Shown: positions 12,001-57,561 of the stretch, piece after piece
Position numbering within the stretch: position 1 is the stretch's first letter
Layout: each line of letters starts with the position of its first letter
Source: Tetradesmus obliquus
Lineage: Eukaryota; Chlorophyta; Chlorophyceae; Sphaeropleales; Scenedesmaceae
Length of the DNA: 64,000 nucleotides
Reading direction: 5' to 3'
NCBI GenBank assembly: GCA_030272155.1
Contig: CP126194.1
Span: 3,029,501-3,093,500 of the forward strand
The notes under the pieces: model-generated
Told to the model about the DNA's origin: nothing
Seen by the model: only the letters and a program-made list of their open reading frames with translations
The model's database searches: none
Program-made: the position numbers and the translations under genes

Positions 12001-13734
12001 CTCTCTCATCACACTGTATGCATGTTCAGCAACCAAACACATCCCAGCCACTGCAACCAACCGCTGGTGCTGCGTTGGTGCTGCATGCATTTCAACACAT
12101 AAGGACACAACATATTGATGCCTTGCGCTGCAGGGTGGCGGCGTGAAGTTCCAGGTGCCAGTGGCGGGTATCAAGCTGCACAGTAAGCTGGTGGTCCATT
12201 GGCGCTGACATGTGCTGCGTGTCTGCTGCATTACTGGTGTACTCCTGCAGGGTGGCGGCGTGAAGTTCCAGGTGCCAGTGGCGGGTATCAAGCTGCACAG
12301 TAAGCTGGTGGTGCATGTGGCTTTCAAGGATCTCACTACAACAAATCAACAATTGATGCTTTGCACTGCAGGGTGGCGGTGTGGAGTTCCAGGTGCCTGT
12401 AGCCGGCATCAAGCTGCACAGCAAGCTGGTGGTACACGAAGATGGAGGGGTCACGCTGCGCCCCATGCACCCACCCACACGCGCCACACCCCCGCTGCTC
12501 AATGGCAAAGCCCTCGTTGACAAGGGCGTGTGTTACGAGCTGAGCCATGGCGATATCATCGATATCGGGGGCGCGAGGTTCCTCGTGGAGTGGCACAGCA
12601 TGCCGCAGCAGCAGCTGGATGAGATGGCTGCGGCAGTGGTAGGGGCATCTGGCGCTGCTGCTGTTGCGGCGGCTGCGGCGGCAGCAGCAGCGGCAGCAGC
12701 GGGCGGCGGCTATGTGAGGCCGGTGAAGCGGAGTAGGCCGCCGGCGAGGTCGAGGCCGCGCGGGGCGGGCGGCAGGGCAGGCAAAGCTGCCGCTGCTGCT
12801 GCTGCAGCAGCAGGCGATACAGGGGATGTGATTGCAGCAGAGGACGCTATGATGCTGGATCAGCAGCAGCTGGGTGGTGTTGCTGGCGATCAGGTTGAGT
12901 GTAAGCCTGCGCGAGGGGCAGCAGCAGTAGCAGTGAAGAAAGAGGAGCAGGTTGATGCCGCCCCAAGCAGCAGCGCTGCAGGCGGCTGGCCCTCTGCAGC
13001 AGCAGCAGCAGCAGCACCTCCTGCCCCAGGCTCTTTCAGGCCTGCACACCGCTCCCGCAAGCAGAAGCATGTCAGCTCAAGCGCCCTAGAAGCAGCAGCA
13101 GCAGCAGCTGCCGCAGCCACCCCACCAAAGCGGCAGAAGAGCAGCAGGCATGCTGCGGCGCAGCAGCAGCAGCAGCAGCAGCAGCGCTGCGCGTCGGTGA
13201 GCAGGGCAGCATCGCCGTCAGTGTGTGGTGCTGCTGCTGACTCGCTACACAATGCAGGCGCTAGCACTGCTGGCTATGCTGCTGGGGAGTGGGGCACTAA
13301 CAGTCCCAGCCCACGGGGTGCAGAAGCAGCAGCAGCAGCTGCTGCTGCCTGTGAGCCAGCTGCAGCAGCGGCACTGCTAACAGATGCTGCTGCAGCTGCT
13401 GCTTTTGCAGCGCCTGGCGCGCTGCATGGCAGCAGCAGCACTGGCAGCCCCACCAGCCGCAGCAGGGAGGAGCAGCAGCAGCTGCTGCTGCAAGCTGCTG
13501 GCTTCTGGCCCATGGCGCCTGCTGCACCCCAGCAGCCGCAGCCGCAGCAGCAGTTTGAGGTGCAGCAGCGGGACTTCTTCCCTGCGCCTGCGAGCCGGCC
13601 GCTGCCGCGCATCAACAGCAGCAGCAGCGCAGCAGCTGCCGCTGCATGTGCAACAGGGTACGACACACAGGGCATGCTGCCTGCGCAGCTGCAGCTTGCA
13701 AATCAGCAGGCTGCTGCATTGGCAGCTGCTGAAG

Positions 13735-13768
<34 letters not shown>

Positions 13769-14147
13769 ACAACCAGCCTACGAGCAGCAGCAGCAACAAG
13801 CAGCAGATGACCCTGCAGCTGGCCAGGTGCTGCCGCTAATCCTGCAGACGCTGGCAGCAGCAGTGCGGCAGCGGCAGCAGGCGCGCTCGCAGCAGCAGCA
13901 GCAGCAGCCTGCAGATGCTGCGCAGGGAGGGCTGGGTGGCCTCGACAGTGCAGCGATCAGCAGCTTGACTGCTGCTTTAATGGCTGTGGCAGGTGCAGCA
14001 GGCTCGCGTGGTAGTGGCAATGCACAGCAGCCTCACCAAGCAGCAGTAGATGAGGCGCAGGGCTTCAACAGCAGTGGGTTGCTGGCTCAGCTGCCTGACC
14101 TGGCGGCTGCAGTAGCAGCAGCAGCTGCGGCGCATGGGCAGCACTAG
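6375..14147 (+). CDS. NSD-like multi-PHD-finger protein with FHA-like domain (multi-exon)
   Basis: Probable nuclear chromatin reader. Start MSQEFVE at 6375 joins in frame to 6989 (VELDEEAW), then 7313-8318 (Ala/Gln/Lys-rich), 8594 onward, 9048-9113, 9349-10402, 10800-11805 and 12372-14147; each border has GT..AG and compatible phase. Zinc-finger segments: CHECLNHRDG..CDGTC..FHMQC..WYCEDC, then CAVCGDKG..YKCTMGSCGRYYHPTC, CCPSHYCQSCHLSG..LLRCWTCPRAYHTSC, and ECPWCRVAH. This spacing resembles the PHD array of NSD/EDM2-type proteins, but no SET domain is present. After a long Ala/Gln linker comes an FHA-like fold: VGKSHWHFGTHYK, IKLHSKLVVHEDGG, LLNGKALVDKG and LSHGDIIDIGGARFLVEW. RG-rich (9650-9870) and KR-rich stretches suggest nucleic-acid binding or nuclear localisation. 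The C-terminal about 500 residues are low-complexity Gln/Ala. The exon at 12372 is preceded by two extra copies of its start. Confidence 0.82.
9002..9042 (+). repeat. (CTG)n tract abutting a 3' splice site
   Basis: About 13 CTG units end five bases before the acceptor at 9047|9048 of the exon beginning YCEDCRRG. The tract occupies the place of the polypyrimidine tract. It is intronic because the exon on each side is fixed by the conserved PHD finger reading W|YCEDC. Confidence 0.85.
12134..12442 (+). repeat. triplicated exon start in the PHD/FHA gene
   Basis: Three tandem copies of the same roughly 70-bp exon start, each preceded by CTGCAG, begin at 12134, 12251 and 12372 (periods 117 and 121 bp). 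Copies 1 and 2 are identical over at least 60 bases; copy 3 differs at several positions and reads into the remaining 1.8-kb exon. All encode GGGVxFQVPVAGIKLHSKLVVH, the FHA-like phosphopeptide-loop region. In copies 1 and 2 the bases CACAGTAAGC form a good 5' splice site, giving 49-nt exons at 12134-12182 and 12251-12299; copy 3 has CACAGCAAGC and so no GT there. Read without splicing, copy 1 meets TGA soon after (HWR-stop). Confidence 0.9.
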
Positions 14148-15790
14148 AGCTAGGGGTGCTGCAGCAGTGCGTAGCGTGCTTGTGTTTTGCGCGAAGTGAG
14201 CGGCTGCTGCTGCTGCTGCTGCTGTTGCAATGAGCTGCTGGTGATGTACATGGAGTGATTGTGGTTTTGGAGATGCAGGTGGTGGCTGCTGCATGATGCA
14301 GGATCATTTACACAGGCAGCAGCACTTGCAGGCTGTACTGCCATGGTGCACTAGCAGGGTTTTATATAGTGGTACGTGAAGCTGGCTGCTGCTGCTGTGA
14401 CAGGAAGGGGTGCATGGTGTGACGTGAACAGTGCGAGCTTTGGTGTTAGTGTTGCGCCAGTATGACTGTGACCAGGTAACTAGCACAGCTGTGCCATCAC
14501 ATTATGCTTTGATGTGCTTCTACTTTTGCATGACGAATTCCTGTCTAGGCTGGCACAGGCTTGCTTAGTTGACTGGTGAGGAGCGCAGTGTAGCCACTGC
14601 TGCATGGCGCAGCAGCTATGCCTGCGCCATGCAGCAGTGGCTACACTGCGCTCCTCACCCTGTGACACGTTTAAGAGTCGTTGTATTGCCTTCTTCAGGT
14701 ATACATTGCTTGGTCATGACTTCCACATAGTTCACTGCGTGTCACTCAAGCGTTTTACCTTGCTGCTGTCTTTTCAAGAAACCAGCGATTGTCTTGACTT
14801 GTCATTGTGTTTCAGCTCCTGGCTGGGTTCAGCTTAAGGCTTAGCCGTTCTCTCTATATTGTGTAGATCTATCTTGTCTTGTTTACTGGCTTGCGCATTG
14901 TGCTGAAGGCAGTTCGGCTGAGCCTGACAATGGAAGCACATGCACATTCTGTCTGTTGCCCTATCATGTTGTTTCGCAAGAATTGACAATTTACTCTTGT
15001 GCACGATGCTTGTGTGTCCGTTATGTACAGTTGTGATGCCATGCAGGCATGGTTGCGTGCACGTGCCCAGGCTGTGGCAATGCTGCATTGGCAGACAGCA
15101 CCTGCTGCAGATGCATATGCGCAGCATGCCGCAGCGTGGGTATTTGTGTGCTGCTAGGTAATGGTTTAGTGGCCTGTGACCAGTGGGCTGCCAAACAATC
15201 ATGCTCTGGAACTGTTGTGGGCATCGCTGCTGCTGCAGCAGCTGGCATCGTCGAGTGCGATCTGCTGGGTGGCATATGCTGCAAATGGTATTGACGCATG
15301 AAGCAGCTGTCACGTGCGATGGGTTCGCTTTGCAACAGCTACTTCCTGCTACCCTTTTGGCGCACGGGCAGCCCAATTGGGCTGGTTAGCCAGCAGTTGC
15401 ACAGCCGTTCAAAGGGGCGCCCCTGCGCTTGCTGACATGTTTGAAAAGTGGTTGTGAGATCTTATTGAAACATTGAGAGCTAAATGAACTGTTTTCCCTC
15501 TTACCAGCTGTCAGCAGAAACCCGCGAAACGTTGGCACCTTGTGCCGTGCCGGCGACCTGCGTGCACCAGGTGGCGACGCCCGAACCTCATGGGTTTCTG
15601 AGACGCAAACAGCTCCGGTATTGAATTTTTAGGGCATTACCGAATACCCTTGTTCATGCATGTTGATTGATGACGACATCGGTGAGCACAAGGAAATTGG
15701 CCCAGAACGCTGAGCTCGCTTTCGCACTAGCCGGTTGTGATCGTGTTCAAAGGGTCGGTTTGGGTTCGTCTTACCTGTCGACGAGACATC
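14148..15790. other. 3' region of PHD/FHA gene and intergenic DNA
   Basis: No supported coding region was found. The minus-strand frame at 14834-15376 (180 codons) is rich in Cys/His/Gln with no domain and lies where the 3' untranslated region is expected. The segment contains the long perfect inverted repeat at 14575-14659 and a 12-bp palindrome (AGGGGCGCCCCT) near 15412. Confidence 0.5.
14575..14659. repeat. perfect 38-bp inverted repeat with 9-nt loop
   Basis: The left arm 14575-14612 (begins GGTGAGGAGCGCAGTGTAGC) is the exact reverse complement of the right arm 14622-14659 (ends CACTGCGCTCCTCACC). The 9-nt spacer is CAGCTATGC. Pairing stops at the next base on both sides (T opposite C). 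If transcribed, the RNA would fold into a fully paired 38-bp hairpin. It lies about 430 bp downstream of the PHD/FHA stop codon. A small-RNA precursor, a terminator-like element, or a replication/assembly fold-back are all possible. Confidence 0.92.
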
Positions 15791-18700
15791 ATGCCGCATG
15801 CAGTGCCTGAAGTTGCAGTGCTGCAAGAGCAGCAATCGCCTTACCCAACCGCATGGGTTGCTGTCCCCATGACCCCTGCATCGCCGTTCGAGCAGGCAGC
15901 ACCTCACATGCAGTCTGCACATCCAGCCAAGCAGCAGCTGCAGCCCCAGCGACAGCAGCAGCAGCAACAGCAGCAGGTTGTCAGGCCCAGGCGAAGCCGC
16001 CTGGCTGCCCTGCTGAGCTGTTCATGCTTCGGCGACAGGCCTGCAGTGAACGAGCCAGCAGTAGTGGCGGAGCCTCCCCTGGGATCACTGAGCAGCGAGG
16101 AGGCAGATGCAGGCAAGCGCATGCAGCTGGGTCACACCAAAACTCCCAGCAACATCGATGCAGCTGCCTGTGTGGGGCTGTGATGTGCATTTGCAGACTG
16201 TTGACTGCACGTACTCATCGCATGAACCCTTTTGCCATCCATCTTTACATCGCTCCCAAACACTGTATCATGCATCTTGGCGCTGGTGTATCAAAAACCA
16301 AAAAGTCCCAGGCTGACTCACCTGCTGTCTGCTTCCGCAAACTTCCGCCTCCTCGGCTGCCCCTCCCCCTCACCCCACTCTGCTCCTCCATTCTCCCCAC
16401 AGTAGCAGAGTGCAGGGCAGCCAGCAAGCCGCCCCAGCTGCCAGTGGGCAGGCGCCTCTCAGGCCACAAAACCTGGGACGCTGTACCCCGCCGCCACAGC
16501 CAGAAGCTCTCCCAGCTCAGCCACGCAGAAACTGACTACTACGATGCAGAAAGCTGCCATGGCTCAGATCACTCAGACCACCAGCTGCCACCCATCAACA
16601 GCATAGAAGAGCTGGAAACGATTGCATCACAGCTGCAGGAGCAGCTGCAGCTGCAGCAGCAGCCCTCGGGAGGGGTGCCTGGCGTGTCTGGTGCTGCAGC
16701 GCGGCTGGCCAGCGGCGGCAGCAGGCCGCCATGGGTGCCTGAGACGCCGCTGCTGTTTGCACGTGAGTGGTGGTGCTGCTGCTGCTGCTGCTGCTGTGTT
16801 AGACTGCTTGTAGTGCCTGCAGCGGTTCTGCATCAAGTGCTGCACAGGCATGCATACTTGATAGTGCTCAGACTGCAGAATGGTGACCAACGATGCAGCT
16901 GTGGCTGCTGGCAGTACGTTTGCAGCTTGCGGTGCTTGCTGCTGTGCTTGATGCATGCATGCACATCAGTGTGACGGCTCATCCTTTTCAATGTTAGTCA
17001 TGACGCCTTCTCGTGCTGGTTCAACTGCATCCTTTGCTTCATTGTCTGCTGCAGCCCCTGGCACCAGCTATGTGCCTGTGCCAGCACACACCGGCTTTGC
17101 AGCATACTGGGAGAATGACATGGCGCGCACCACACCCTTCCCACAGGTGAGCGCAAGCAGCAGCACCATAGGTGGTTGCCACCTTGGTTCTGGCAAAGGT
17201 GGCAGTCGGCAGAGGGTTGTGTGCAGATGCAGTGTCTTGCCCGGCGCCCTGCATGCATGTTTGCTGCTGTGACGCTTGTTCGCCTAGTTGCAGCCAACGC
17301 ACTGGAAGCCAACGCATTGGAAGTTGCAGCTGTGCAAGCATTGCTGTACAACCTGTTGCTATCGGTAACCCGTAACCTGGCACTATGCTGCTGCTGCTGC
17401 CGCCAGCCCATTGACGTCATGCTGGGCCTGAACTTCCTGGTGAAGCGCGCACACAAGAGCATCCCAGGGCTGTGGCTGCAGGAGAACGACACAACCATGA
17501 CAGGTATATGCTCTTGTGAACGGGCTGGAATAATGTGACACTGGGCTGGGCAGCAGCGGCAGTTTGTGCATTTCTGCTGTCTGGTGGCAAACAGAACAGC
17601 AATACACATCGCGGCAGGTGTAGCCACAGCAGCAGCACTGTCGTTGCAAAGCTGTCAGCAGTGGGTGGGGCCAGCACTGGTGAGGCGCCTCTGGCCAGCG
17701 CGTGCTGCTTTAAACTCGTTTGACAACTGTAAGCCATGGCAGATGCCGGGGTCTTAAATACACAGTACTGTTTCGTAGTACGTGCACATTGCCTCTAGAC
17801 GATGATTGACGTCCACTTGCTGCTCGCTTATGTACATTCTACTAACCATATGTGTGTTTGTGCCTGCTGCGGCAGTGACTGCCAAGCCCAGCTTCCTGCC
17901 GCCTGGTGCTCTGGCCAACTACTGTGAGTACTATGACAAGACCAACGCAACAGAGGCGGTGTGGTCGCTCAGGCGGGACATGGGCTTCGGAAGCATGTCA
18001 GGTGTGTGCCCGAGGGGCGGCTATTGATAGCAGGCACGGCAGTGCAGTGCAGTCCCAGCGGCTGCTGCCGCCGGTTGGTATTGTGCGCTGATTGCCAGGG
18101 CGTGCAGCAAGTATCCAAGTGTAGGGTACTGATCATGATTAGTGCTGTCTGTGCGTACAGCAGGCCGCACGGCCAACTCTGAGAAGCCCAGTTGGTCCTG
18201 AACTTGATGTCTTGTCTGCCGCATTGTAACCTGCTTTCTGCCGAGGTTGGTGACCTGTGCTTTGCTGTTGCTCACTGGTCTTGCTGCCCGCCCGCCTGCC
18301 TGCCTGCCTGCCCGCCTGCCCGCTGCGCTGCGCAGGCCGCATCTACATGACTGCTGACGGCACGCTGGTGCTGCGCACCGTGTCGCGCAGCATGATGCGC
18401 CACGAGGTGGAGAGCGTGTGCGAGGACTACCTGAGCCTAGAGGAGGATGGCCAGGTGGTGGTGGACCGCATGTGCTGCATGCACGTGGCCAGCGGCAAGC
18501 GCGCGGTGCAATACCAGGTGCGTTGAAATGCGTGTGGCGTAGAGGCAATGCACTTTTTGATAGAATCTGCAAGCTTGTGTGATGTCATGGTTGTGGGCGC
18601 TGTAGTGGGTGACGCGCAGCAGGTGGTGGTGGACCGCATTTGCTGCATGCACGTGGCAAGTGGCAAGCGCGCGGTGCAGTACCAGGTGCGGTGAAATGCC

Positions 18701-19122
18701 TTTCATGTAGAGGCGATGCCCTTTGTGATAGAGTCTGCGCAAGCTCGTTTGATGTTATGGTTGTGGGCGCTATGGCGGGCGACGCGCAGCAGTAGGTGAC
18801 CACATTTGGTTTTCACATGTTGTGGGACCTGGTTGGGGAGGAAGCACGGTGCAGCAGCAGGCGAGACGGGTGCCTGGCAATCCCCGCTGCATGCTTTGCT
18901 GATGTACACATGCATTTTTGACCCTACTGTTGCTACTTGAGTTTGGTTTGGCTGTTTCAACAACTCTATGGACGTTGAAATAATTGTGCTTGTGCCCATG
19001 CTTTCTGCTTCCTGAAGGTGGGCAGGCGTCGTGAGCACCCGCCCAGCGGCTGGGGCGCCTCCATGGTGCCAGGCTTCAAGCCGACACGCACCCTCAGCAT
19101 CGTGCCGCACCACGACACCTGA
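15791..19122 (+). CDS. unrecognised multi-exon gene with a Gln-rich N-terminus
   Basis: A chain of exons in consistent order, product not recognised. Start MPHAVPEVAVLQ at 15791; the first exon carries a poly-Gln run and a basic patch RPRRSRLAALLSCSCF. Further segments: about 16402-16761 (ECRAASKPPQLPVGRRLSGHK, then an acidic His/Asp/Ser stretch and a coiled-coil-like Gln helix), about 17057-17145 (YVPVPAHTGFAAYWENDM), about 17404-17502 (PIDVMLGLNFLVKRAHKS), about 17874-18001 (AKPSFLPPGALANYCEYYD), 18336-18517 (IYMTADGTLVLRTVSRSMM .. VVVDRMCCMHVASGKRAVQYQ) and about 19019-19122 (VGRRREHPPSGWG .. SIVPHHDT, stop TGA). The later exons together give a compact region with alternating beta-like strands, loosely reminiscent of small lipid-binding folds, but no motif fixes a family. 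The 18336-18517 exon end is followed by a duplicate copy. Confidence 0.6.
18455..18792 (+). repeat. tandem duplication of an exon end plus intron
   Basis: The 63-nt exon end at 18455-18517 (VVVDRMCCMHVASGKRAVQYQ, donor CAG|GTGCGT) recurs at 18623-18685 (VVVDRICCMHVASGKRAVQYQ, donor CAG|GTGCGG), with the following intron also repeated. A third, decayed start is seen at 18781-18792 (GACGCGCAGCAG, then AGGTGACCACATT). Period is about 168-170 bp. Copy 2 is preceded by GCGCAGCAG, a usable acceptor, so it forms a complete in-frame 21-codon cassette exon. Confidence 0.88.
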
Positions 19123-21247: not shown

Positions 21248-23220
21248 TCACCAGGGGATCTCATCCCCTGAGTAGGAGTACCACCTGCCATTTAATGGCA
21301 GCCCATCCTCCAGCACCCGCATGATGCCGCTGCTGCTCTCCTCCACATCAACCCAGCCAGCACCACCTGCACACGGCCAGCACAGCATCACACCAAGGAC
21401 ACCACACACCGCACCCGACTACTGTAAGCGCGCTGTGATGTCTGTACACGAGCTGCTGCAGCAAACACAGACGGCGTCACCAGCATGTACTCGCAAACCT
21501 GCTTTACCACGCCATCTCAGTTCAACAGTGTGCACAAGTGTCAAAGGAAACATCACTGCGGTGCAAAGCATCCTGGTGAGCTACTGTTGCCAGCCTGTAA
21601 GCTAGGCACTGCTGCCAGATATGTTGTGTGTGAACTGCCCGCACCTGTCATGTCGGTTTTCACGTAGCCCGGGTGCACGCAGCAGCACTGCACCTGCTGC
21701 TCCTTCAAGTCCAGCAGCAGCGCCTTGTTGATGATGTTCAGCGCAGCCTTGGACGCCCTGTAAGCGGCAGCAGCAGCAGTAGAAACTGTTTCTTAGCAAG
21801 CGCCCGCAGCACTGCTGTCTCATCAGCATGGAGCACGTACATGCAACAGACGGTACAGACAGCAAACTGCGCAGCTGACGCATGAGCTGGAATGGTCGCA
21901 GGTTTCCAGGGAGGTGCCATGCCAGGTGCGCAGCTCCACCGTCGCCTGTCGCAAATGTCCGATATGATACGATCCATCCTTACTCAGCACAGCGCTGCCA
22001 TGGCAGCTGCGCAGCTGCACCTCCACACCAACCCAGCTGTAGGCGTAGCCGCCTGGAATCATACTGATATGTCAGATGTGAATTGACAGATCATTACTAA
22101 GCATAGCGCTGCCATGCGAGCTGCACAGCTGCACACGCCACACCAGCTCACCTGTAGGCGTAGCCACCTGCAGTGACGCCGCAGTGTAGCACACCCGCAC
22201 GCACGCCGAATCTCAGTTTGCAAAGCACAGACAATGCTGTCATTACCCTCCAGCATTGTGTTTCCACGCCAGCTACGCAACTGCACTACTGGCTTACAGC
22301 GTCGCAGCACACCTGTAGGCGTAGCCGCCTGGAGTGATGCCGCTGACTGTCTCATCCCCGTGTGAGGCCATGATGCTGCTCACGTTGACCACCAGGCTCC
22401 CTGGAGGTCCTAACAAGCCCTGCTTCAGCAGCTGCTGCACCACCAAGAACGGCCCTACTGCATTCGTTTGAAACACCGTCATAAAGTCCTCGGCTTCGAA
22501 TTCTGCCAGCTGCAGCCGGCGGCCATACATGCCTGCGTTGCATAATGTGATGTGATGTAATGTGATGTAATGTAATGCACTGTAATGCATTGCAAAATGC
22601 AATGTAATGTAATGTCATGCATAAAGATTGTACACAGTACATGCAAGGCTGTGCACCTTCAAGCAAAGCTGGACCAGGAGACCCCCGCCCAAAGCCTCCT
22701 CATGCTCCGAGTGCGCTGTCATGCAGGCACAGTATACCAGCCAGCAGCGTATCATCAAGCAATGGACGTACCTGCATTGTTTATGAGGACATCCACATGG
22801 CTGGTGTGCTGCTTGAGGGATGCTGCCCAGTCCTTGATGGATTGTGGCTGGCTGGTGTCGAGCTGTGTGATGGTCAGGTTGGAGTGCTGCGCTGCAAGCT
22901 GCTGCAGCTGGCTGGCGTCTTGTGGGTTGCGGGTGGTAGCGATCACTTTGTTCTGGCGGGACAGCAGCTTCTCTACTAGGCCTTTGCCTATGCCCCTGCA
23001 GGTGTGACAGCAGCTAATGCAGGTGAGGTGGAGCTTACCAGAGCAGCAGTGTTGCCCACACCAGGGCACGTGGCTGGTGGGGTGTGTGAGTGACATGCCG
23101 TACATGTTGCTGTTGATGGTTTGTGTGCGCAACGTTGTATACATGTGCATTGGCGTGGTGCATGCGTTGAGCTCACCTGCTGCCTCCAGTGACCACTACA
23201 GACTTGCAAGTGAGGGCCAT
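21248..23220 (-). CDS. short-chain dehydrogenase/reductase, C-factor-like (multi-exon)
   Basis: Classical SDR with a Rossmann fold that uses NAD(P)H to reduce or oxidise a carbonyl or alcohol; the substrate cannot be told. Start MALTCKSVVVTGGS at 23220, exon 1 ending at 23177 and joining to RGIGKGLVEKLL, which completes the TGxxxGxG nucleotide-binding loop. Next are LDTSQ, VLINNAG (NNAG motif), MYGRRLQLAEFEAEDF, NAVGPFLVVQQLL, VVNVSSIMAS (catalytic Ser region) and ITPGGYAY joined to RASKAALN, which restores catalytic YxxxK. HPGYVKTDMTG follows, and the last exon GAGWVDVEESSSGIMRVL .. YSYSGDEIPW ends with TGA at 21248-21250. The ending matches the small C-factor/sniffer-type SDRs of about 230-250 residues. 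The intron inside YxxxK is flanked by several copies of the exon end. Head-to-head with TIM22. Confidence 0.87.
21910..22345 (-). repeat. tandem repeats of the catalytic-Tyr exon end in the SDR gene
   Basis: On the minus strand the exon end GGCGGCTACGCCTACAG (GGYAY) occurs near 22313-22329, again with one change near 22152-22168 and again near 22037-22053, each followed by a related stretch containing GCTGGTGTGG and GCAGCTCGCATGGCAGCGCT-like bases. A fainter fourth copy of that stretch reaches 21910. Spacing is 161 and 115 bp. Copy 1 continues into GTGTGC and copy 2 into GTGAGC, both possible donors; copy 3 continues into CTGGGT and has lost the donor. Copies 2 and 3 are preceded by CTGCAG or TTCCAG, possible acceptors. 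Confidence 0.85.
22542..22616. repeat. ATGTA/ATGTGATGTA microsatellite
   Basis: Imperfect short tandem units of (A)ATGT(G)A and AATGCA type run through an intron of the SDR gene. It is unlike the CAG/CTG repeats that dominate the rest of the window and is AT-richer than its surroundings. Confidence 0.85.
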
Positions 23221-23763
23221 GTCTGCAGGCTGATGAAGCGCTGCCTTTCAAAGTTTGCCTTGGAAGCGCAGCAGTTTCAGAAGGCACCCAGTTCAATTTG
23301 CAAGAATTACAGATCCTGGTGCAATTCAAACAGTTTACAACAAACAGACACAGCAGAGAGGATACAAGGTGTCAGCATGGAGCAAGTTTGGAACTTCTGC
23401 TCCTTGCTGTACGTGCACCTGTTACTGGCATCTGGGCGGTCGCTTTGTTATGCTACTACGCACATTGTAACGCTGAGAATTCAATGTCTGGTGGATCAGC
23501 GTCATATGTTCGACAGGCTGTTGATCGCTGCACCTACACATCTTGTTGACGCGTGCCTGAAGGCTGACCTGGGTTTGCCGTGAATGCCCTTCGTAGCTCC
23601 CATAGATGATTTCCTATACAAAGCGCTTTAAACAAGTGTATTCAAGTTGCAAACGCTAGGCAATCTGGGCTGCACCCTGTAGCAGCAGGAGCATCACCAG
23701 CAGCAGCCAGCAAGTGACCAGCTCAAGGCCAAGCAGAGGGTTGTTCAACCTGCAAACTGAAAC
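23221..23763. promoter_or_regulatory. head-to-head intergenic region SDR / TIM22
   Basis: About 540 bp between the SDR start (23220, minus) and the TIM22 start (23764, plus). No coding potential is apparent. A promoter function for both genes is inferred from orientation. Confidence 0.4.
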
Positions 23764-23969
23764 ATGCCGTTTTGGAGACGCAAAAGCCAAGATGATAGCG
23801 CCAGCAGTAGCATTAGTGCCAGCGATATAGCTCTGCCAGATGCAGAGCAGCAGCATCAGCATCAACCGCAGCAACAGCAGGAGCAGCAGCTGGAACTGCA
23901 GCTAGAGCAGCCGGTGCCTCCACCAGACTTTAGCAGCACCAGCAGCAGCGGTGAAGATGCAGCAGCCGC

Positions 23970-24002
<33 letters not shown>

Positions 24003-24686
24003 GCAGCAGCAGCAACAGGAGCCCAGCCCTGGCGAAGACAACCCTATGCTACAAACAAGCTTGACGAAGCGCTTCAAGGGCAGGTTCCACCCCATGCAGA
24101 TGCCAACATATGACTTGATGATGCAGGTGAGAGGCTGCCAGTTATGAAGCTGACATGAGCAATCTCACACCATTAGTGCAGCTGCAAACGCAAATAAGCC
24201 TGAAACGCAACACATAGAACCGGTCACTGATTTTACAAAATTGCACAGCTGCAGGCTGCACTTGGAGCTGCACACAGGCTCTCATACAAGTCAGCGATGC
24301 AGGCATATAACAATATAGGATGAGCTTGACAGGTTGTTCAACAGGCAGGGTGCGTAGCAGATGCGTGTTGGCGTGAAGTGTACTTGTGTAGCTGCTAAAA
24401 GGCCTTGCTGCGGTGTATGGCACAGCAGCAGCAGGCCTGCACAGAGTTTTCACTGCTGTCAGCGCTGTTTCAGATGGCATCTGGTGGTGCTGTATCAACT
24501 CGCGCAGTATGCGAACCAGCAGCAGAAAATCATGTCACCCAGTATGCTTGCGCCGTGGCTGTGTTATCCTGTGTCCTCCGACATGCGCTCACACTTCTAC
24601 TTTGCCTGCTGCTCTGCAAGCCATGCCAGATCGCTCTCTGCAGTGCATTCAGTGTGCGCACGTATGTTCTCATCCTTACTGCGGTG

Positions 24687-24755
<69 letters not shown>

Positions 24756-41225: not shown

Positions 41226-42204
41226 TCACCATGCCCTGTACAGGCCCAACAGCAAGCACCACCACACGCGAGCACCACCCCAGATATGCCCACCTTGCTG
41301 CCTGTGAGCACCATTTGCGGCCCCATGGCATGAGCCATCAGTGGCAGAGCACCCCCAGGACTCACTCCCTCCACCAGCAGCCGCCGTTGCTGCTGCTGCT
41401 GCTGCGTGGCATGCCACATCTCCCTCCATGCACTGCTGACCGCTGCCTGGCGGCTGCTCCTGACCCTGCCTGGGCGTATGAGGCGCATCCGGCACGCGCT
41501 GCTGCTGCTGTTCCTGCTGCCTCAGCCGCTGCAGCCGCGGCGGCAGCAGCGAGCCATCTTCCCCTCGCTGCCACGCCTCCCCTCCAGCCCGCTGCACCTG
41601 CTCATTCTTCTCTGCATCCAGCCATTCGGCTTCTGCGAACGCACCCTGGCCATCTGCCGGCCCCTGCACGCCTGCAAAGTTCGAGTCCCAGGCTGCCCAC
41701 TCATTTGGGTACGCGGCCTCCCCTGCGCCCCACGGCTTCTCAGTCGGCAGGAACGTCCCCGGAGGGATGTTTGCGGCTGCATAGTCGGTGGCAGTGAAGG
41801 GCTGCCCGCCCTGCTTCATGTGCAGCAGCGCATACAGCGGCTGCTTCATGAAGGCGGGCGTGCGCTTGAAGGAGGTGTAGGCCACCACCAGCATGAAGAA
41901 GGCAAAGCCGCCCCAGAAGGCCAGCCTGCGGCAGCAGCAGCAGCAGCAATGCGGCAGCAAGTCAGCCATCGGCAATCAGACAGTTTATCTATCTATCCAA
42001 CTTTTTATCTATCGTGTGCAGGCTCCACACAGTGCAATCGAAAGCTGCAGCGTCGCACAGCAGCAGCACCCAGAAGCACGCCGGCTGCGCAGCCGCCGCA
42101 CCTGTCGATCATGGCCTGGCGCTTGCAGCAGCCAGCGATACAACATGTGGCGAGTCTATCTATCTAGTTTGTGCAGGCTCGTAGTACAGGGGACAGCTGC
42201 AACT

Positions 42205-42248
<44 letters not shown>

Positions 42249-43987
42249 GCACCTGTCAATCATGGCCTGCCGCTTGAGCGTGCCCAGGCTGCCGTGCGCC
42301 TCCCTGAAGTGCTGCTTCTGGCCCACCAGCTCATCATCAGCTTCGCCCAGCCGCCTGTTGCCGGCAGCTGCAACACAACACACGCAGAAGGGGAGGAAAC
42401 AGGGGGCAGAGGGCAGCACAGCAGCAAGGGGGTGAGGTGCATGGCGACAATGACCAGACTGATCAGCCGCCCCAACACCATTGAGATTGATTCAAGGGGT
42501 GCAACGACTGCTTCAAAGCAGCTCCAGCCGCCTGTTGCCGGCAGCTGCAGCACAGCGCATGTGGCAGGAGAGGAAACATGGGTGAGGCGCATGGCAACGA
42601 TAACACGGCCCCACAGCATGATGAGGCAATCGGTGCAACACTGCCTACATGGGCAACTGCATCCAGTACACCGCTGCTGCAGCGCAGCATACTCCAGCCA
42701 ACACACACCAGCTTGCTGCACCATGCTGCTGCATACACAGAACAACACACGGCGTGTATGGCCTGACCCATATGCAGGCCGCCTGTGCTGGCCACGCACC
42801 TATGACGGAGATGTTGCCGTGCGTCTGCTCCAGGTTCTGCGCCATCAGCTGCTTGGTGCGCCGCAGGCTGGCTGTCACGTCCTGCGCACCCGTCAGCGCG
42901 TCCTGCTCGCTGGCGATGCGCCGCTGCCGCTGGCTGAAGTCCGGGGAGCCGATCAGCTCCTGGCGCTGCGGAAACAAACACATATTGTGATGACATAATT
43001 GCAAGCGGGATTCAGTGACTGCAAGTGAAAGAAGAGCCCAAAGCAGCAGGTGCAAGCAGAACTTCCTACGTTCCAAATGCAGTAACAAGGGACAGTGCAA
43101 CGTGCACGCAGAGCTGCATGACGTCCAGTGCCCTATGCCAGTGCGTATGAAGGAAGCAGTGCTAAGTGCCTTTGACAGTGGTTGCTGAAGAGCAGCCAAG
43201 CGTGAATTGAGTCGTGTGCACTGTGACAAGCTCAGGTGCTGCATGCAAGATGCGGCTCGCGAATGCAGGTATCAGCAGCCGGCATTGCATTTCGGCAGCT
43301 TCTGCAGGCACAGACAGCCGAGCATTGCAGGCTCATACGTCCTGTACACACACCTGCTGCACATAGGACTGGTCCTTTCTCCGTGCAAACGAGACGCGAG
43401 CATCCAAGTAAGCCTTGTGTGCCCTGCAGGACAGCATGCACCGCGTCAAACCCGGCTGCTGCTGCTGTGCCAAAGTGGAAGCAAGCCATTGTGTCTGCAC
43501 ATCAGCACAGCAGTGGCACTGATCCCTGCTTGACACGCGCTCCAGGCAGGGTTACAGATGAGCATGTATTATCAGCAGATCGTACCTGTCAAGCTCTCCT
43601 TGATGGTGAGCCAAGCATGTTGCCACGCGCTGCACTTGGTCTGGCCTGCAGCAGTACAAAGCAGCACAACAGGCACGCCTTAGGATGCTCCTACACGCAT
43701 CCCCTAGCCTGCAGATCATTGATGCAGCACTAATCAGCCTTCACTTACGTCTCTTGCTCCTCTGCTGCATACTGCAAGTCCTGCAGTATGGACCTCAACC
43801 GCCTGAACTGATCCTGCACTTTTGCCTCCAGAGCCTGCACTGCGCTGTGGGGCGTGCTGACATCCAGAACAGACAGCTGCTGAATGTCTTGAGACGCAGC
43901 TGCCATGATCTGACTGATCGCATTGCTGATACGCTGTTCATCAGCCCCCAGAGGTGGCATGGCCATCCCCCCGTTCATCATCTTCAC
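41226..43987 (-). CDS. SEC20: Sec20-type Qb-SNARE (multi-exon)
   Basis: ER-resident SNARE for Golgi-to-ER retrograde transport. Minus-strand segments: MKMMNGGMAMPPLGADEQ at 43987, then ISQIMAAASQDIQQLS and ALEAKVQDQFRRLRSILQDL; AYLDARVSFARRKDQSYVQQ near 43350; ELIGSPDFSQRQRRIASEQDAL and DVTASLRRTKQLMAQNLEQT near 42850-42960 (SNARE-like helix, closest to plant Sec20); GNRRLGEADDELVGQKQHF .. LGTLKRQAMIDR near 42250-42370; and a single membrane segment LAFWGGFAFFMLVVAYTSF near 41930. After the membrane the frame continues with AANIPPGTFLPTEKPWGAGE and EAEWLDAEKNEQVQRAGGE, far longer than the usual short lumenal tail. The frame runs to a stop at 41226, but a different frame reaches a donor at 41294 that could splice to the Gln/Ala-rich exon downstream; the frame change between them is unresolved. 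Two of its junctions carry tandem duplicates. Confidence 0.78.
42097..42610 (-). repeat. tandem duplications at both borders of one SEC20 exon
   Basis: The exon end CGGCAGGCCATGATTGACAG|GTGCGG (42249-42276) recurs at 42097-42126 as CGCCAGGCCATGATCGACAG|GTGCGG, preceded by TGCTGCAAG, a possible acceptor, so a 20-nt micro-exon. The exon start GCAGCTGCCGGCAACAGGCGG (42351-42371) recurs at 42527-42547, and the sequence upstream of it (GGAGGAAAC .. GTGAGGTGCATGGC) is repeated too. Thus both splice junctions of the same exon have been copied, in opposite directions. Confidence 0.82.
42207..42246. repeat. (CAG)n tract just inside a SEC20 intron
   Basis: About 13 CAG units on the plus strand, read as (CTG)n on the coding minus strand, begin a few bases after the 5' splice site GACAG|GTGCGGC. 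They separate the true exon end from its duplicate copy. Confidence 0.85.
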
Positions 43988-49085: not shown

Positions 49086-49265
49086 CAGTGCGCGCTAGAT
49101 CAGGCTTCATCTGCGGGGTTCTGGCTGCCCTGCTGGATGCACTTTTAAAAGTTGCGGATGCAGCTTGAGCAGGACAGAGAGTTCAAAAAATCACTACAAA
49201 GAGACGAATGCACCCATGCCATGTGTTCATACACAAACTTTCAGCATGCCCGGCGCCACTTCTGG

Positions 49266-52200: not shown

Positions 52201-54228
52201 TACGACAGGTCCCCCACCAGCAGCGCGAGGCGTGCCTCACCCTCCTGCAGCAGGTGTCCCGCCAGCTTGCTGCTGTTGGCCGTGTAGTTTACCCAGGCCC
52301 AGCCGCCAGGGCAGTAGGGAGGGCAGATGTCGTTGAACACCACTGCACAGCAGCAGCAGCGCGCTCCTGATGTTGCGACTGCTTTCCTTTAGTAGTGCTA
52401 CTGCAGCAGCAGGAGCCTCAGCAAGACGCGAGGCTTGTTTGCCTGTGTCTGCGTTGCTGTTGTTTGGTCGTGCGACGCACATGGTGGCCCCCAACACGGA
52501 TGTCCAGCTGCTGCTGGCATGCTGCCTCCCTCATCGAAACCATCCCTTTGCCACCACCCTACCCACCCACCCACCCACAAAGGCACATCCTCACAGCCCC
52601 TTACCTGCATTCTCCTGGCCCACATCGTTGAACACCAGGAAGGTGAAGCTGGCCCTGCCCTGTGCAACAGCTGCAGGCTCAGGGCCTGAGACGAAGCTGG
52701 CTGCCCCACTCCAGCCCACCTCAGGCGAGCCAACCCTGCAAATATCAACAGGTCAAGTTATGCAGACACACTTGCAGATTGTTATGGTGAAATTGAAACA
52801 AAAATGGTGTGCAAGTGATGTCCAACTGCGGCGGTTGCCCCACTCCAGCCCACCTCAGGCAAGCCAGCCCTGCAACAAGTAACAGGTCAGCGTGCAGAAT
52901 GTGCAGACAACACTGCAGGTCGATACAAAATCTGACACAGGACTCAAAAAAACTTGATACAAACATGGTGAAAGCGAAACATACGGCGAGCCAACACATG
53001 TCATGCAGTGAAGATACATGCTGGGGCATTAGGCTGGGTCGTGCTGAAGCTGCCCTGTGGTGAGGTGCCAACATTTCACACGCACCTGTAGTGCACCCTC
53101 CTGTTGTAGCCGATCTCTCTTCCAGGTATGACTGCTGTGTGCATGTAGCCCGGGTGGATGAAGCCAAACGTAGTGGCAGGCTCCCCACACATCATGCCCC
53201 TGTCATAGCTGCGCACAGTAGACAGCACCATCAAAGCACCGCTGTCTGCGCCGCTGTAAAGGTGGCTTGTGGCGGCTGCAAGTGTGTTGACTGGATTGCT
53301 GGCCAATGGTGGGGCCCCTCCTGTGAGGTGGCTTGCAGCGTCGCTGTACTGCAGCTGCTGAGGTGCCGCGCTCCCACTGACCCATTGGACGACTACTGAA
53401 CTGCCATCAGCATGCAATGCCAGATGTATTTGTCCCGGGGCGTCGGGGTTTGTGTTTTTGATCACTGCTGATTCAGCCAGCACCACGGGCGAGAATGTGT
53501 TATTTCCCACCAGACGGAAGATGAAGTTCTGCCGGAAGTTCAGCAGCTGGAAAGTGACGCTGCCACTGCCTGTGGCTGGGTAAGCAGGGCTGCTCGCTGT
53601 CAGGTTTTGCCAAGTTATTGGCAGTGTAGATCTTGGATCACTTGGATGTGTATACAGGGCTATTACATCATCTGAACTGGCTTTGCTGCTTGGGCGCTGC
53701 ACGCGCACAGTGACGCTGGCTGGCTGGCTGCCGGGGTTGAAGGTATTGGTGCTCAGTACTATCTGAGTGGTGCCTGCAGAGGATTGGCAGTGACACACAA
53801 TTGGCAAGATATGTGCGGGCAGTGGCTGCCTGCCAGAGAATGAAGCAGCTGCACAGCAAAGCTTGAGCACAGCAAGCTATAGCTGGCTGGCTAGTTAGCT
53901 GTGCAGGCAGCGCTAGCAGGTGCCGCAGTTATGATGCTCAAGAGGCAAGCCTCATGTTGTTTAAGGGACATGGCCAGCTGTGGATGCTGTGTGTTGGACC
54001 TGCTGCCACAGCTTGGTGACGCACAACATTGCTGGTGTCTGGTGCACTACTGGATGACACTGCTCCTATCTGCGTGTTGAGGAACCAGAACAACTTGCCT
54101 GCCAAGTCAAGATTCACATCCTTCACAAGCAACAGCCTTTTCGCACTGTGAGCTCTGGCAGCGTTGGCAAGGCACAGCAAGCAGCACAACAGCAGCAGGG
54201 CAGCAGGTGCAATGGCACCCATGCCCAT
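49266..54228 (-). CDS. purple acid phosphatase (secreted metallophosphatase, multi-exon)
   Basis: Binuclear-metal acid phosphatase, usually secreted or vacuolar and used to scavenge phosphate from esters. Start MGMGAIAPAALLLLCCLLCL at 54228 is a signal peptide. A fibronectin-like N-terminal domain follows (IVLSTNTFNPGSQPASVTV; QIHLALHADGSSVVVQWVSG; FGFIHPGYMHTAVIPG; PEVGWSGAASFVSGPEP). Catalytic motifs in order: FNDVGQENA (GDxG position, here NDVG, about 52630), LVGDLSYANG (52200), DWDYFGHQFQAPFSRWPLMVATG (51900), GNHERDQPFTG (about 51600), DSGGECNVPYTYR (about 51530), MATVHFIMLDSE (50840), HPWLVVGLHR (49840) and VHLVLQGHEHAYART (49710). The tail (DQNGYLRVTVSGG) ends at 49266-49268. Two Ser-rich insertions (50960-51160 and 49560-49650) enlarge the catalytic domain. 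GHEHAYAR replaces the more common GHVHAYER. Convergent with ABC1K. Confidence 0.9.
52702..52980 (-). repeat. tandem duplication of an exon start in the phosphatase gene
   Basis: The exon start encoding PEVGWSGAA with its acceptor (coding strand TTGCAG|GGTTGGCTCGCCTGAGG; 52702-52740) recurs upstream in the intron at 52836-52874 as TTGCAG|GGCTGGCTTGCCTGAGG, period 134 bp. Flanking intron pieces (CAGGTCA, TGCAGACA, ATGGTGAAA.CGAAAC/ATTGAAAC) are repeated as well. The upstream copy diverges after AGTGGGGCAACC. Confidence 0.85.
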
Positions 54229-54580
54229 GGCAGGTAGTTGGGCGTCTCGTAACTCCTTTCAATAGTTTAGGTTTATGGTTACGATGCGCTCAAGGCGCTG
54301 TTCGTAAGTAGGCCGAGGATCGAGTCCGGTGTCACTGTCGTCACCAGCTCCCATGTTTTTGCGCTGCAAATAACGCTTGCAGTTTCCCTTTGCATACACT
54401 TTTCGTCTACATCACATGCTTCAAACGGCAGAGCAATGTCAAGAAGTGAGCATACCTAGCTGCTGAGCTGGTCACACTACGAGATTTGCCTTGCACAATT
54501 GAGGCACCTGCAAGTAGCTTATGGTCGCCAACAGTTTCTGCTAGGACAAAGTTGCGCTTTGCAGGCTGTTTCCCCAGCCA
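54229..54580. promoter_or_regulatory. head-to-head intergenic region PAP / MFS transporter
   Basis: About 350 bp between divergent starts, the shortest of the four head-to-head spacers in the window. An in-frame upstream ATG at 54499 could shorten it further. No phosphate-response motif could be assigned by eye. Confidence 0.4.
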
Positions 54581-55319
54581 TGCAGCTCGCGCCGTCTCTT
54601 CATACTCGTTGGACGTCCAGCTCAGCATCAGCAGCAGTGCACCAATTGTGCCGCCCCAGCTCACCAACCAAACGCAACATACGCGCAAATGGGCTGCTGG
54701 TGAAACAGCCCAGCAGGCCTTCAACGCCTGTGCTGACAGAGGAGGCAGCAGGCTATCAGGCAGAGGAGCAACTGGAGATGACTGTACAGAAGCCAGCAGC
54801 AGACCAGCTGCTCCTAGCAAAGGTAACAACACTACATTCACTGCATGATTAACTAACAAATACGTTTTGTATGCTTCACACCTTGCAGCCGCCACACAAC
54901 TGCCCTCATTGAACAACCCTAACCACCTACCCTGGCGCCGCCCAACCTAATCACAACTGCTGCTAATTGCAGGCATGGAACTTCCTGTCAGGGAGTTCCG
55001 GAGCTTTCGTGGTCCCGTACATCCCGCTGCTACTGTCCCAGCACGGCATGAGCGCAACGCAAATCGGACTGCTGGCAGCACTGCGGCCCTTCCTAGCAGC
55101 ACCCTCGCAGATGGCAGCATCAGCAGCAGCAGACAAGCGCAGAGTGCATGTCAAGCTGCTTCTGGTGGCTGCTGTGTTGTCGGCTGCGCTGCGTGCAAGC
55201 CTGCCGCTGGCAGACAGCGCAGTGCTGCTGTTTGTGCTGCTGTTGGCGTCAGAGGCCATAGGGGCTCCAGTGAATGTGCTGGCAGACTCCACAGTGCTCT
55301 CCAACTGCAAGGATGTGAG

Positions 55320-55377
<58 letters not shown>

Positions 55378-56399
55378 TAGCGATGCAAGTGTAAAAGTTC
55401 AGAAATGACGCAACTGTGCATGCATGCTGACTTCAAGTGCATTGTTAACCATGCAGCAAACTACTCACAGCCATTGCGCACGGTCACTGCCGGTGAGGCG
55501 GACTGCAACCTCGCCGCGCACGCTGGCGCTTGCCGTGACAGGCAAACCACCACTCATCCACACACGTTGAGTTCTCATGCTATTCCGTTGAGCATGTGCC
55601 ACAACACTGTGCCGGAAACGCATGCAGGCGGGCGACTATGGCAAGCAGCGCGTGTGGGCCAGCATCGGCTGGGGTGCTGCCAGCCTGCCTGCCGGATGGC
55701 TCATCTCGCAGGCAGGCATCGCCTCAGGCTTCCTGGTGTATGGCCTGGCCTCGATCCCGCTGGTGTGTGTGGCCACACAGCTGCGCTACAACTACGGCAG
55801 CAGCAGCGCTGCGGCAGCAGTGCCGGCAAACAATCAGCAGCAGCAGGCGCCTGTCAGCGCTCCATTAGGTGTTGAGAGTTGTGCAGCAGCCGGGCAGCAG
55901 CCGGCCATCGGCATGCGGCAGCTGCTGCAGCAGCCTGCGGTGCTGGCGTTCCTGTGGCAGTGCCTGCTGATGGGCTTTGGGCTGGGCGTGATGGGCACGT
56001 ACGAGTTTCTGTGGCTGAAGCAGCTGGGGGCGCCGGAGACGCTCATGGGCATGGCGCTGCTGGTGAGGCTGCTCCTGCCGCTGCTGCTGCTGCTGCTGCT
56101 GTGTTTGTGTGTTGCACATTGCGATGCATTTTTGTCGAATGTTGCAGCACGGACGTGCTATTGCTGGGGTAGCAGCCGTGCTAGCAGCTGCATGGAGAGG
56201 AAGTCTCGAGCAGCAAGGCAACATGCAAGCATGGCAACCGCAATTCATGATACTGCTGTATGGCAAATTGTACCACGCTCGCAGTGTACAGCGCAAAAGT
56301 AGTGCTGCAGGGTCTGTGGTGAAGGCCGCGTGATGTTTTGTTGCACATGTGTGTCACCTCAAAACCAGCCTTAACCCCTCTACATGGCTGAAACCCCGC

Positions 56400-56435
<36 letters not shown>

Positions 56436-57561
56436 ATGCTGCCTCTTTGTCAATTTTCAGTTCAACGTGTGCACGGAGGTGCCTGCGTTCCAGATGCAGG
56501 GCGCCATCATGGCGCGCATGTCACCCCCTGCGCTGCTGAGTGTGGTGCTGGGCGCGACGGCGCTGCGGCTGGCTGCATATGCGGCACTGCCTGCTGCTGG
56601 CAGCCCCTGGGCAGTGCTGCCAGTGGAGCTGCTGCATGTGAGTGTGGGTGTGGGTGTGGGTGTTGCGGTGACTGTACCCAATGCTGCTGCTGCTGCTGCT
56701 GCTGCTGCAATGCTCGTTGTGTTGCAAACACAACTGGCATGATGCCAGTGGCATCATCATGCCAGTGGAGCTACTGCATGTGAGTCGTGCTGCAGCAAGA
56801 TCTGTCCCGTTCTGTGCAGGCTACGGCAGCTGCGCTGCCAGCGTCATTACATCGATGTCTGTGCTGTGGCCTAACCCAGGTTGTGGACACTGCAGCTGCC
56901 TGGTTGGTGACGTGCTGACACTGTGCTGCTGCTGCTGCTGTGGCTGCATGCAGGGCATCACTTTTGGTGTGGGCTTCTCCACTGCCACTGTGTATGGCAG
57001 CAGGCTGGCTCCTCCACAGCTGGCAGCAACCTTCCAGGTGGGGACCAGCCGCAGTGCTCGAGCTGCAGCAGCAGTGGCTTTGTACTTAGGTTGGTTAGGG
57101 CTGGGGGTTGTCATGGTCAGCTTGCAGGGGGTTCGAACCGAAAGAAGCGCTTTTTGAATCCACGGTGGCTGATACCATTATTGATGTGGTGAATGCACCG
57201 ACTTGCAGCTGCGCTGACAAACGCGACATCCAGCCATCTCGTGTTGCACATGCAGACCAAGCAGAATACTCAGCTAATCAAACCTGCTGCTGCTGCCGCT
57301 GTATGCTGTTGATGCCTGCAGGGCTTGTGGCAGGCCACATATGCTGGCATTGGTGCTGGTGCAGGTGGCCTGCTGGGTGGCCTTTTAATGGAGCGCTGCG
57401 GCGGCCAGGGCCTGTTTGCTGCTGCTGCTGCCATTGTGGCTGCTGGAGGGCTTGCTGGTGTGTGTGTTGAGAAGGCAGCTGAGGCGCTGCAGGCTGGCAG
57501 GGCAACACGGCCGGGGAAGGTGGTGAAGCGTGGTGTTGACAGTGGAGTAAAGGTGGAGTGA
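54581..57561 (+). CDS. major facilitator (MFS)-type membrane transporter, probably organelle-targeted
   Basis: Multi-helix transporter, substrate unknown. The N-terminus MQLAPSLHTRWTSSSASAAV is Ser/Arg-rich without acids, like an algal chloroplast transit peptide; an upstream in-frame ATG lies at 54499. Exon 1 ends at 54822 and joins in phase to 54973-55314: AWNFLSGSSGAFVVPYIPLLL, MSATQIGLLAALRPFLAAPSQ, DKRRVHVKLLLVAAVL and FVLLLASEAIGAPVNVLAD. This is the MFS_1-like (LacY/MFSD6-type) pattern with the charged loop after helix 2. Further exons: AGDYGKQRVWASIGWGAASL (55626 on), MGFGLGVMGTYEFLWLKQLG, FNVCTEVPAFQMQGAIMARM (56461 on), GITFGVGFSTATVYGSRLAP (56953 on) and the last exon GLWQATYAGIGAGAGGLLGG .. 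stop TGA at 57559-57561. The sequence GDYGKQRVWASIGWG is the family hallmark (D.GRxRxWGSIG). The donor at 56638 has a duplicate 142 bp downstream. Confidence 0.85.
55319..55377. repeat. (GGCT)n microsatellite immediately after a 5' splice site
   Basis: About 14 perfect GGCT units begin right after the donor GGAT|GTGAGT at 55315 in the MFS transporter gene. Translated from the exon it would give a false GWLAGWLAGWLA run ending in a stop, so it must be spliced out. Confidence 0.92.
56400..56432 (+). repeat. (CTG)n tract in an MFS intron
   Basis: About 11 CTG units stand upstream of a conventional pyrimidine-rich acceptor (GCCTCTTTGTCAATTTTCAG|TTCAACGTG). Here a true T-rich tract lies between the triplets and the AG, unlike the TIM22 and PHD/FHA cases. 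Confidence 0.8.
56620..56785 (+). repeat. duplicated exon end / donor in the MFS gene
   Basis: CCAGTGGAGCTGCTGCAT|GTGAGT at 56620-56643 (PVELLH, donor at 56638) recurs with one change at 56762-56785, period 142 bp. The second copy is entered through a near-palindrome at 56733-56766 (ACTGGCATGATGCCA / TGGCATCATCATGCCAGT). CTG units and a GT-rich stretch lie between. Confidence 0.85.

What the first reader, a model, noticed from the sequence alone, without database searches (positions are those of the whole stretch)
12134..56785. Short tandem duplications centred on exon-intron junctions in at least six separate genes
The PHD/FHA gene (12134-12442), unknown gene (18455-18792), SDR (21910-22345), SEC20 (42097-42610), PAP (52702-52980) and MFS (56620-56785) each carry 2-4 tandem copies, with periods of about 115-185 bp, of a piece that includes a splice site and its flanking exon. 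Random tandem duplication should hit exon middles and intergenic DNA just as often; nearly all the cases I can see straddle a junction. Either these arise from a junction-linked process (for example R-loop- or spliced-RNA-linked repair), or selection removes exon-only duplications while splicing hides these. Tandem duplication of AGGT-containing exon sequence is a known theoretical route to new introns and alternative exons; its density in one 64-kb window is what stands out.
Basis: partly seen in the sequence, partly recalled or inferred. Interest (0 to 1): 0.82.

Follow-up and report, generated by a model that had tools for sequence, protein, structure and literature searches.

The report
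Duplicated exon edges inside neighbouring introns
In this genome, short pieces spanning exon-intron borders are repeated beside themselves far more often than chance predicts, with the extra copies lying in introns where splicing can remove them, which hints at frequent local copying of exon edges.

Summary
In detail: all six places hold tandem copies, and the pattern recurs in 250 kb from three other contigs. With my self-trained exon/intron model, 59 of 76 short-range repeat arrays straddle a predicted splice junction, against 24.7 +- 4.0 for random placement; none are exon-only (expected 10.9) and 5 are intergenic-only (expected 21.7). Repeat ends pile up 2-10 nt past a junction: 43 against 3.0. 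A simulation of uniform duplication plus selection, decay and similar detection gives only 29-31 straddling.

Two facts go beyond plain duplication. The spacer between copies has a recognisable partner in only 10 of 31 arrays, where simulation expects 95-100%. Copies differ from the exon mainly at third codon positions, sometimes only there, even in a copy lying past a stop codon.

Best reading: roughly 120-bp junction duplications are tolerated because splicing removes the extra edge, and their exon parts came from, or were exchanged with, a diverged version of the exon. R-loop or spliced-RNA repair has no positive support here. Assembly chimerism is not excluded. Gene models lack transcript support; long reads and RNA-seq would decide.

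The parts
12114..12198 (+). PHD gene, copy 1: intron tail, CAG, exon head (predicted exon 12134-12190)
   Evidence: family D13; self-BLASTN; exon model
12231..12315 (+). PHD gene, copy 2 (predicted exon 12251-12307)
12352..12436 (+). PHD gene, copy 3, continuing into the long predicted exon 12372-14144
   Evidence: PHD_NSD Pfam hit on exon 9351-10400
18452..18619 (+). unknown gene, copy 1: exon end, donor, intron start (predicted exon 18336-18517)
18620..18808 (+). unknown gene, copy 2; the model calls 18623-18685 an exon
21955..22055 (-). SDR gene, intronic copy
   Evidence: family D15
22069..22182 (-). SDR gene, intronic copy including the exon-tail match at 22144-22182
22305..22343 (-). SDR gene, exon tail plus donor (predicted exon 22313-22532)
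   Evidence: adh_short hits on SDR exons
42006..42125 (-). SEC20-labelled gene, intronic copy of the donor side
42161..42276 (-). SEC20-labelled gene, exon tail side (predicted exon 42253-42367)
42347..42405 (-). SEC20-labelled gene, acceptor side of the same exon
42524..42582 (-). SEC20-labelled gene, intronic copy of the acceptor side
52699..52755 (-). PAP gene, acceptor and exon head (predicted exon 52605-52735)
   Evidence: fn3_PAP hit on exon 53088-53771
52833..52889 (-). PAP gene, intronic copy
56618..56643 (+). MFS gene, exon tail plus GTGAGT donor (predicted exon 56461-56637)
   Evidence: MFS_1_like hit on exon 55628-56062
56760..56785 (+). MFS gene, intronic copy with its own GTGAGT

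Best explanation
Short tandem duplications, mostly 100-140 bp in period with a smaller group near twice that, arise within genes. Those covering a splice junction can persist because the first donor or the last acceptor still defines the original exon, so the extra exon edge lies in a longer intron and is spliced out. The exon parts of the copies then stay alike, coding-like and splice-competent while the spacers lose resemblance. I infer that the exon parts derive from, or are repeatedly exchanged with, a diverged version of the same exon (another haplotype, or another copy in the array), and that exchange is confined to exons because introns are too different to pair. Shown: copies, junction enrichment, end pile-up, missing spacer partners, third-position bias. 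Inferred: splicing outcome and recombination between diverged versions.
For: Enrichment and end pile-up against random placement and against simulated uniform duplication with selection and decay. Solved relatives of two affected proteins hold each duplicated peptide once (RPT3, chain 8amz_K; ClpP-like, chain 7eko_L). Spacer partner found in 9 of 18 acceptor-type and 1 of 13 donor-type arrays, where plain duplication would show it in 360 of 360 and 246 of 260 simulated trials. Differences over 62 pairs: 260 of 1560 third positions, 200 of 3140 other positions; five pairs with at least five differences have all of them at third positions, against 3 of 2369 simulated plain duplications. One such copy lies past the stop codon of the ClpP-like gene. 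In L039 an intronic copy differs from the exon at 9 of 69 bases, all third positions, while the spacers before them are 98% alike over 57 aligned sites with 10 gap columns. In six low-divergence arrays third positions differ more than intron sites, 16 of 156 vs 36 of 833, p 0.005.
Against: No transcripts, reads or haplotypes were seen. The exchange step rests on indirect patterns: differences show no patchiness within copies (1 of 34 pairs at p<0.05, combined p 0.63), though a mosaic origin might leave some. The diverged-homolog simulation reproduces the scarcity of non-genic arrays but places 39-53 of 76 arrays in the mixed class (observed 8) and gives 18-21 ends at 2-10 nt (observed 43); its silent bias is put in by its settings. 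Many copies do decay at positions 1 and 2 as plain neutral copies would (52 of 62 pairs have such changes).
Confidence: 0.45

Rival explanations
1. A junction-linked mutational process (R-loops, splicing-linked breaks or template switching at splice sites) copies the exon edge plus its splice signal into the adjacent intron about 120 bp away, so that copy ends fall at splice sites for mechanical reasons.
For: 43 repeat ends 2-10 nt past a junction against 3.0 by chance, also in the pairs at least 93% identical (9 ends against 0.41; 9 of 11 arrays straddling against 3.4). In three fairly young donor-type arrays the intron after the last copy is unrelated to the spacer (my reading).
Against: Does not by itself explain third-position-only differences in untranslated copies. 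Half of the tested acceptor-type spacers still resemble the neighbouring intron (9 of 18), so their duplicated unit did not stop at the junction.
Confidence: 0.2
2. Plain uniform tandem duplication; exon-only copies removed by selection, junction copies hidden by splicing and detectable for longer because one exon copy is conserved.
For: 0 of 76 arrays are exon-only; several arrays match evenly across exon and intron, e.g. window 18452-18808, and many intronic copies decay neutrally. Divergence-matched simulated plain duplications give a regression of third-position on other differences close to the observed one (slope 0.34-0.44, intercept 0.12-0.13 vs 0.22 and 0.15).
Against: Simulation gives 28.7-30.5 straddling, 14 intron-only and 20-24 intergenic per 76, against 59, 4 and 5, and almost always leaves a detectable spacer partner.
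Confidence: 0.14
3. Assembly artefact: two diverged haplotypes stitched in series at exon edges, where exons align and introns do not.
For: Would give third-position-biased differences, unrelated spacers and ends at junctions; the unevenness among genes (chi2 104 vs 60 +- 13) could mark heterozygous regions.
Against: Arrays of four to six copies, copies with a frameshift and stop and a wide spread of divergence are not expected from two working alleles. The 314-kb sample holds no N, though that does not exclude mis-joins.
Confidence: 0.13
4. The intronic copies are functional alternative or cassette exons kept by selection.
For: Third-position bias and retained splice signals; the model reads the first two PHD-gene copies as in-frame 57-nt exons.
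Against: Offsets are not preferentially multiples of three (24, 26, 26); one silent-only copy lies past a stop codon and another copy has a frameshift and stop; relatives of two proteins hold each peptide once.
Confidence: 0.06

Closest known systems
Intron gain by tandem duplication crossing an intron-exon boundary, potato RdRp gene (Ma et al. 2016, PMC4974935; parts 1 and 2 of 5 read)
   Same: A duplicated piece covers an intron end and exon head, and splice signals are inherited from the old junction.
   Different: There one RNA-seq-supported case whose new intron and exon piece are used; here many arrays whose copies mostly seem to be absorbed into a longer intron, without transcript data.
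Tandem genomic duplication of an AGGT-containing exon segment (Rogers model; review Yenerall and Zhou 2012, PMC3443670, passages seen)
   Same: Local duplication supplies both splice sites; C2 15668-15828 looks like a case.
   Different: Most arrays here duplicate an existing junction instead of creating one inside an exon.
Small tandem duplications at breaks with 3' overhangs, CST and Pol alpha-primase (Schimmel et al. 2021, PMC8355091; abstract and introduction read)
   Same: Short tandem duplications, a possible source of the first copy.
   Different: That paper speaks of insertions under 100 bp and the parts read say nothing of splice junctions.
Introners (Gozashti et al. 2022, PMC9860276; two passages seen)
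   Same: Many intron changes within one genome.
   Different: Five window arrays each matched the genome at one place only, so these are not copies of a dispersed element.

Membership tests
Rogers-type tandem-duplication intron gain | the intron carries a copy of the neighbouring exon piece abutting the next exon, with offset about equal to intron length | tested here: not met
   Among 41 exon-versus-intron pairs listed only C2 15668 has its copy within 2 nt of the next acceptor; one other (C5 37195) starts at the donor. Not met in general, one candidate.
Junction-crossing tandem duplication | the duplicated piece covers exon and intron sides of a splice junction | tested here: met
   59 of 76 arrays by my gene model, unverified by RNA
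Junction-crossing tandem duplication | the new splice sites are used in transcripts | not testable with these tools
   no RNA data
Plain tandem duplication | the whole unit, spacer included, matches between copies | tested here: inconclusive
   Partner found for 10 of 31 spacers; expected in 95-100%. Some arrays meet it, most tested do not.
Introners | similar sequence at many unrelated loci | tested here: not met
   Five window arrays: one genomic match each. Two spacers: matches only inside their own array. The other spacers were compared only with the 314-kb sample, where a few, mainly triplet-rich, had matches elsewhere.
Staggered-break small tandem duplication | arises by fill-in and end-joining of a break with overhangs | not testable with these tools
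   no mutation data

The most novel reading that the evidence does not exclude
Introns of this genome store fossil versions of their neighbouring exons: recombination between strongly diverged versions of a gene, able to pair only in exons, repeatedly leaves splice-competent exon-edge copies about 120 bp into the adjacent intron, so that introns lengthen and record past exon sequences at a large share of junctions.
Probability: 0.28. Interest if true: 0.8.

Novelty: new variant of a known kind. Interest (0 to 1): 0.62.

Why it matters
Duplication across splice junctions is a proposed route to new introns and alternative exons, but the papers seen here treat single cases or tables of intron gains. 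In the sample 127 of 795 predicted junctions lie inside such a copy. If that holds genome-wide, this organism offers very many natural experiments on how the spliceosome chooses among near-identical competing sites and on how introns lengthen; and if the third-position-only differences come from diverged alleles, introns would preserve a record of past exon variants.

Tried and rejected
First gene-finder training failed (5 genes) because of a biased intergenic model and poor seed ORFs; changed.

Dispersed-element origin: five window arrays and two spacers searched genome-wide had no match outside their own locus. The intergenic array 59580-60090 has one partial match on C5. Spacers against the 314-kb sample: mostly local or none; three (C1 19096, C5 35228, C5 37116) match many or several other places.

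Spacer derived from the next or previous exon: 4 of 17 and 3 of 19 at p<0.05, partly because other arrays lie there; not general. One search's spacer test used random intron pieces as null and is superseded.

Period steadier than its parts: among 23 arrays with period under 180, X and S lengths correlate at -0.52 (sd of period 21, X 22, S 22), but over all 33 the correlation is +0.43 and the cut at 180 itself favours a negative value; I do not rest on it.

Regression of third-position on other differences (slope 0.22, intercept 0.15): divergence-matched plain duplications give similar values; not used as evidence. Within-copy patchiness: none.

Known misreadings of my model: C2 47636 counts as straddling but looks like a duplication of exon end, stop codon and 3'UTR; C2 3429 is typed acceptor by the script but looks donor-type. 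In one search the line '7 of 24' was a hand count; the printed recount is 9 differences in 69 bases, all third positions.
Full report
Checking the claim. Self-comparison of the window finds repeats at all six named places: periods 114 to 177, identities 76 to 90%, with the MFS case a 26-bp match at 96%. Tandem Repeats Finder reports only one of the six. The window is C4:3029501-3093500 of a 104.66-Mb, 17-contig genome.

Gene models. I trained an exon/intron hidden Markov model on these 314 kb. It converged on donor CAG|GTGAG-like and acceptor TGCAG|G signals, median exon 135 and intron 259 nt, 63 genes and 459 exons. It has no transcript support. That these chains come from spinach and Chlamydomonas is recalled, not shown by the calls.

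Enrichment. Short-range self-BLASTN (offset 25-600, at least 35 bp, E up to 1e-3) gave 179 pairs; 17 low-complexity pairs were dropped, leaving 162 in 77 arrays. After dropping the 52-bp satellite, 76 arrays were classed by their longest pair against 1000 random placements in the same blocks: straddling 59 vs 24.7 +- 4.0, exon-only 0 vs 10.9, intron-only 4 vs 8.9, intergenic-only 5 vs 21.7, mixed 8 vs 9.8. Repeat ends pointing into an intron 2-10 nt past a junction: 43 vs 3.0. Without the window: 54 of 69 vs 21.4, and 39 ends vs 2.7. Pairs at least 93% identical: 9 of 11 vs 3.4. Offsets peak at 100-140 with no preference for multiples of three (24, 26, 26). Arrays are uneven among genes: 27 of 63 predicted genes hold them, chi2 104 vs 60 +- 13, led by RPT3 (7) and the ClpP-like gene (6). 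A 114-residue piece of RPT3 has its only matches at 95% identity at that one locus.

Other contigs, without my models. The CCT-chaperonin Pfam model gave 96 matches that I grouped by eye into 11 loci; six (C4, C12, C14, C15, C16, C17) have overlapping profile segments within about 600 bp. The proteasome model gave 40 matches at 16 loci by the same grouping, one of which (C11) shows this, so the load differs between families. Two stretches of the C16 CCT gene hold four copies of an exon head, each behind CAG, and five near-full plus one partial copy of an exon tail, the near-full ones each followed by a GT donor.

Anatomy. Call the repeated piece X and the spacer S. In acceptor-type arrays X is CAG plus an exon head and the intronic copy is upstream; in donor-type arrays X is an exon tail plus GTGAG-like bases and the intronic copy is downstream. 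At the position homologous to a junction the second copy usually keeps a splice signal: donors +1/+2 96/95% and +5 89% alike but +4 68% and +6 65%; acceptors C/A/G 93/90/97% (139 and 123 comparisons, not independent). This looks like constraint on both sites while free positions drifted.

Is selection enough? A simulation placed duplications uniformly, removed exon-only events, constrained the true exon, let the rest decay, and detected copies with a local alignment approximating the BLAST cut-offs. Per 76 detected arrays it gives 28.7-30.5 straddling, 14 intron-only, 20-24 intergenic and about 6 edge extensions of 2-10 nt (that last measure is taken on the functional copy only, so it is not identical to the observed count of 43). 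Splicing and detectability thus explain part of the pattern, not the excess or the sharp ends. Among 31 arrays of clear type with a spacer of at least 30 nt, the spacer resembles the intron beside the other copy in 9 of 18 acceptor-type and 1 of 13 donor-type arrays; plain duplication would show it in 360 of 360 and 246 of 260 trials.

Codon positions. Over 62 pairs with at least 25 exon sites, 200 of 3140 first and second positions and 260 of 1560 third positions differ, a third-position share of 0.565 against 0.45-0.49 for divergence-matched simulated plain duplications. Five pairs with at least five differences have all at third positions, against 3 of 2369 simulated. Protein selection on the copy cannot be the general cause: one of these copies lies past the stop codon of the ClpP-like gene, and another gene's copy carries a frameshift and stop. 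In L039, intronic copy 2 and the exon differ at 9 of 69 bases, all third positions (two change the amino acid), while the spacers before them are 98% alike over 57 aligned sites with 10 gap columns. Conversely in L040 copies are 88-96% alike in X while their spacers are at 0.51-0.65 counting gaps, near the 0.53 of random intron heads. In six arrays picked for at least 60 aligned intron sites and at most 10% intron divergence, third positions differ more than intron sites (16 of 156 vs 36 of 833, p 0.005). The simplest reading is that exon pieces were exchanged with a diverged version while spacers stayed.

Mechanism and doubts. I propose duplication of about 120 bp, tolerance through splicing, and exon-limited exchange between diverged versions. 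A diverged-homolog simulation (noncoding divergence 35-50%) gives almost no intron-only or intergenic arrays and more ends at junctions (18-21), but puts 39-53 of 76 in the mixed class, since it lacks splice-site constraint; its third-position share (0.60) follows from its settings. Exchange within an array would act similarly and I cannot separate the two. A junction-linked mutational process and an assembly chimera stay open.

Known work. A duplication across an intron-exon boundary is described for potato (PMC4974935, parts 1-2 of 5), and tandem duplication is a listed intron-gain route (PMC3443670, passages). One intron, C2 15668-15828, fits the classic model: its 3' end copies the upstream exon tail and abuts the next exon, and its spacer resembles the next exon head, p 0.023. 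Seven paper searches listed, among the titles shown, no report of junction-enriched duplications in an alga; the library lacks most subscription journals, so this is weak evidence of novelty.

Noticed in passing
window 61161-63093: A 52-bp tandem array of about 37.6 copies at 93% matches, which my model reads as one long open frame; just before it, 61007-61104 holds two identical 47-bp units.
   Followed up: no
window 59583-60090: Intergenic direct repeats with offsets of about 181 and 361 bp; the stretch has one partial match, 82% over about 85 nt, at C5:1700287-1700373.
   Followed up: partly
window 14575-14659: The stretch matches its own reverse complement at 93% over 86 columns, a near-perfect palindrome.
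   Followed up: no
window 55320-55377: A perfect (TGGC) microsatellite of 14.5 units; CAG/CTG triplet tracts are frequent through the window.
   Followed up: no
L013 5543-5840 (C2:2015543-2015840): Candidate newly gained intron: its 3' end copies the upstream exon tail and abuts the next exon, offset 117.
   Followed up: partly
L003 9241-9960 (C1:1019241-1019960): ClpP-like gene with five 118-bp spaced copies of one exon tail and donor, four spacers nearly identical and the intron after the last copy unrelated to them.
   Followed up: yes
L040 (C16:4179500-4181000): CCT gene with five near-full and one partial copy of one exon tail; spacers share a short AAGCCT-AGGCTT-like motif although otherwise near random.
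   Followed up: partly
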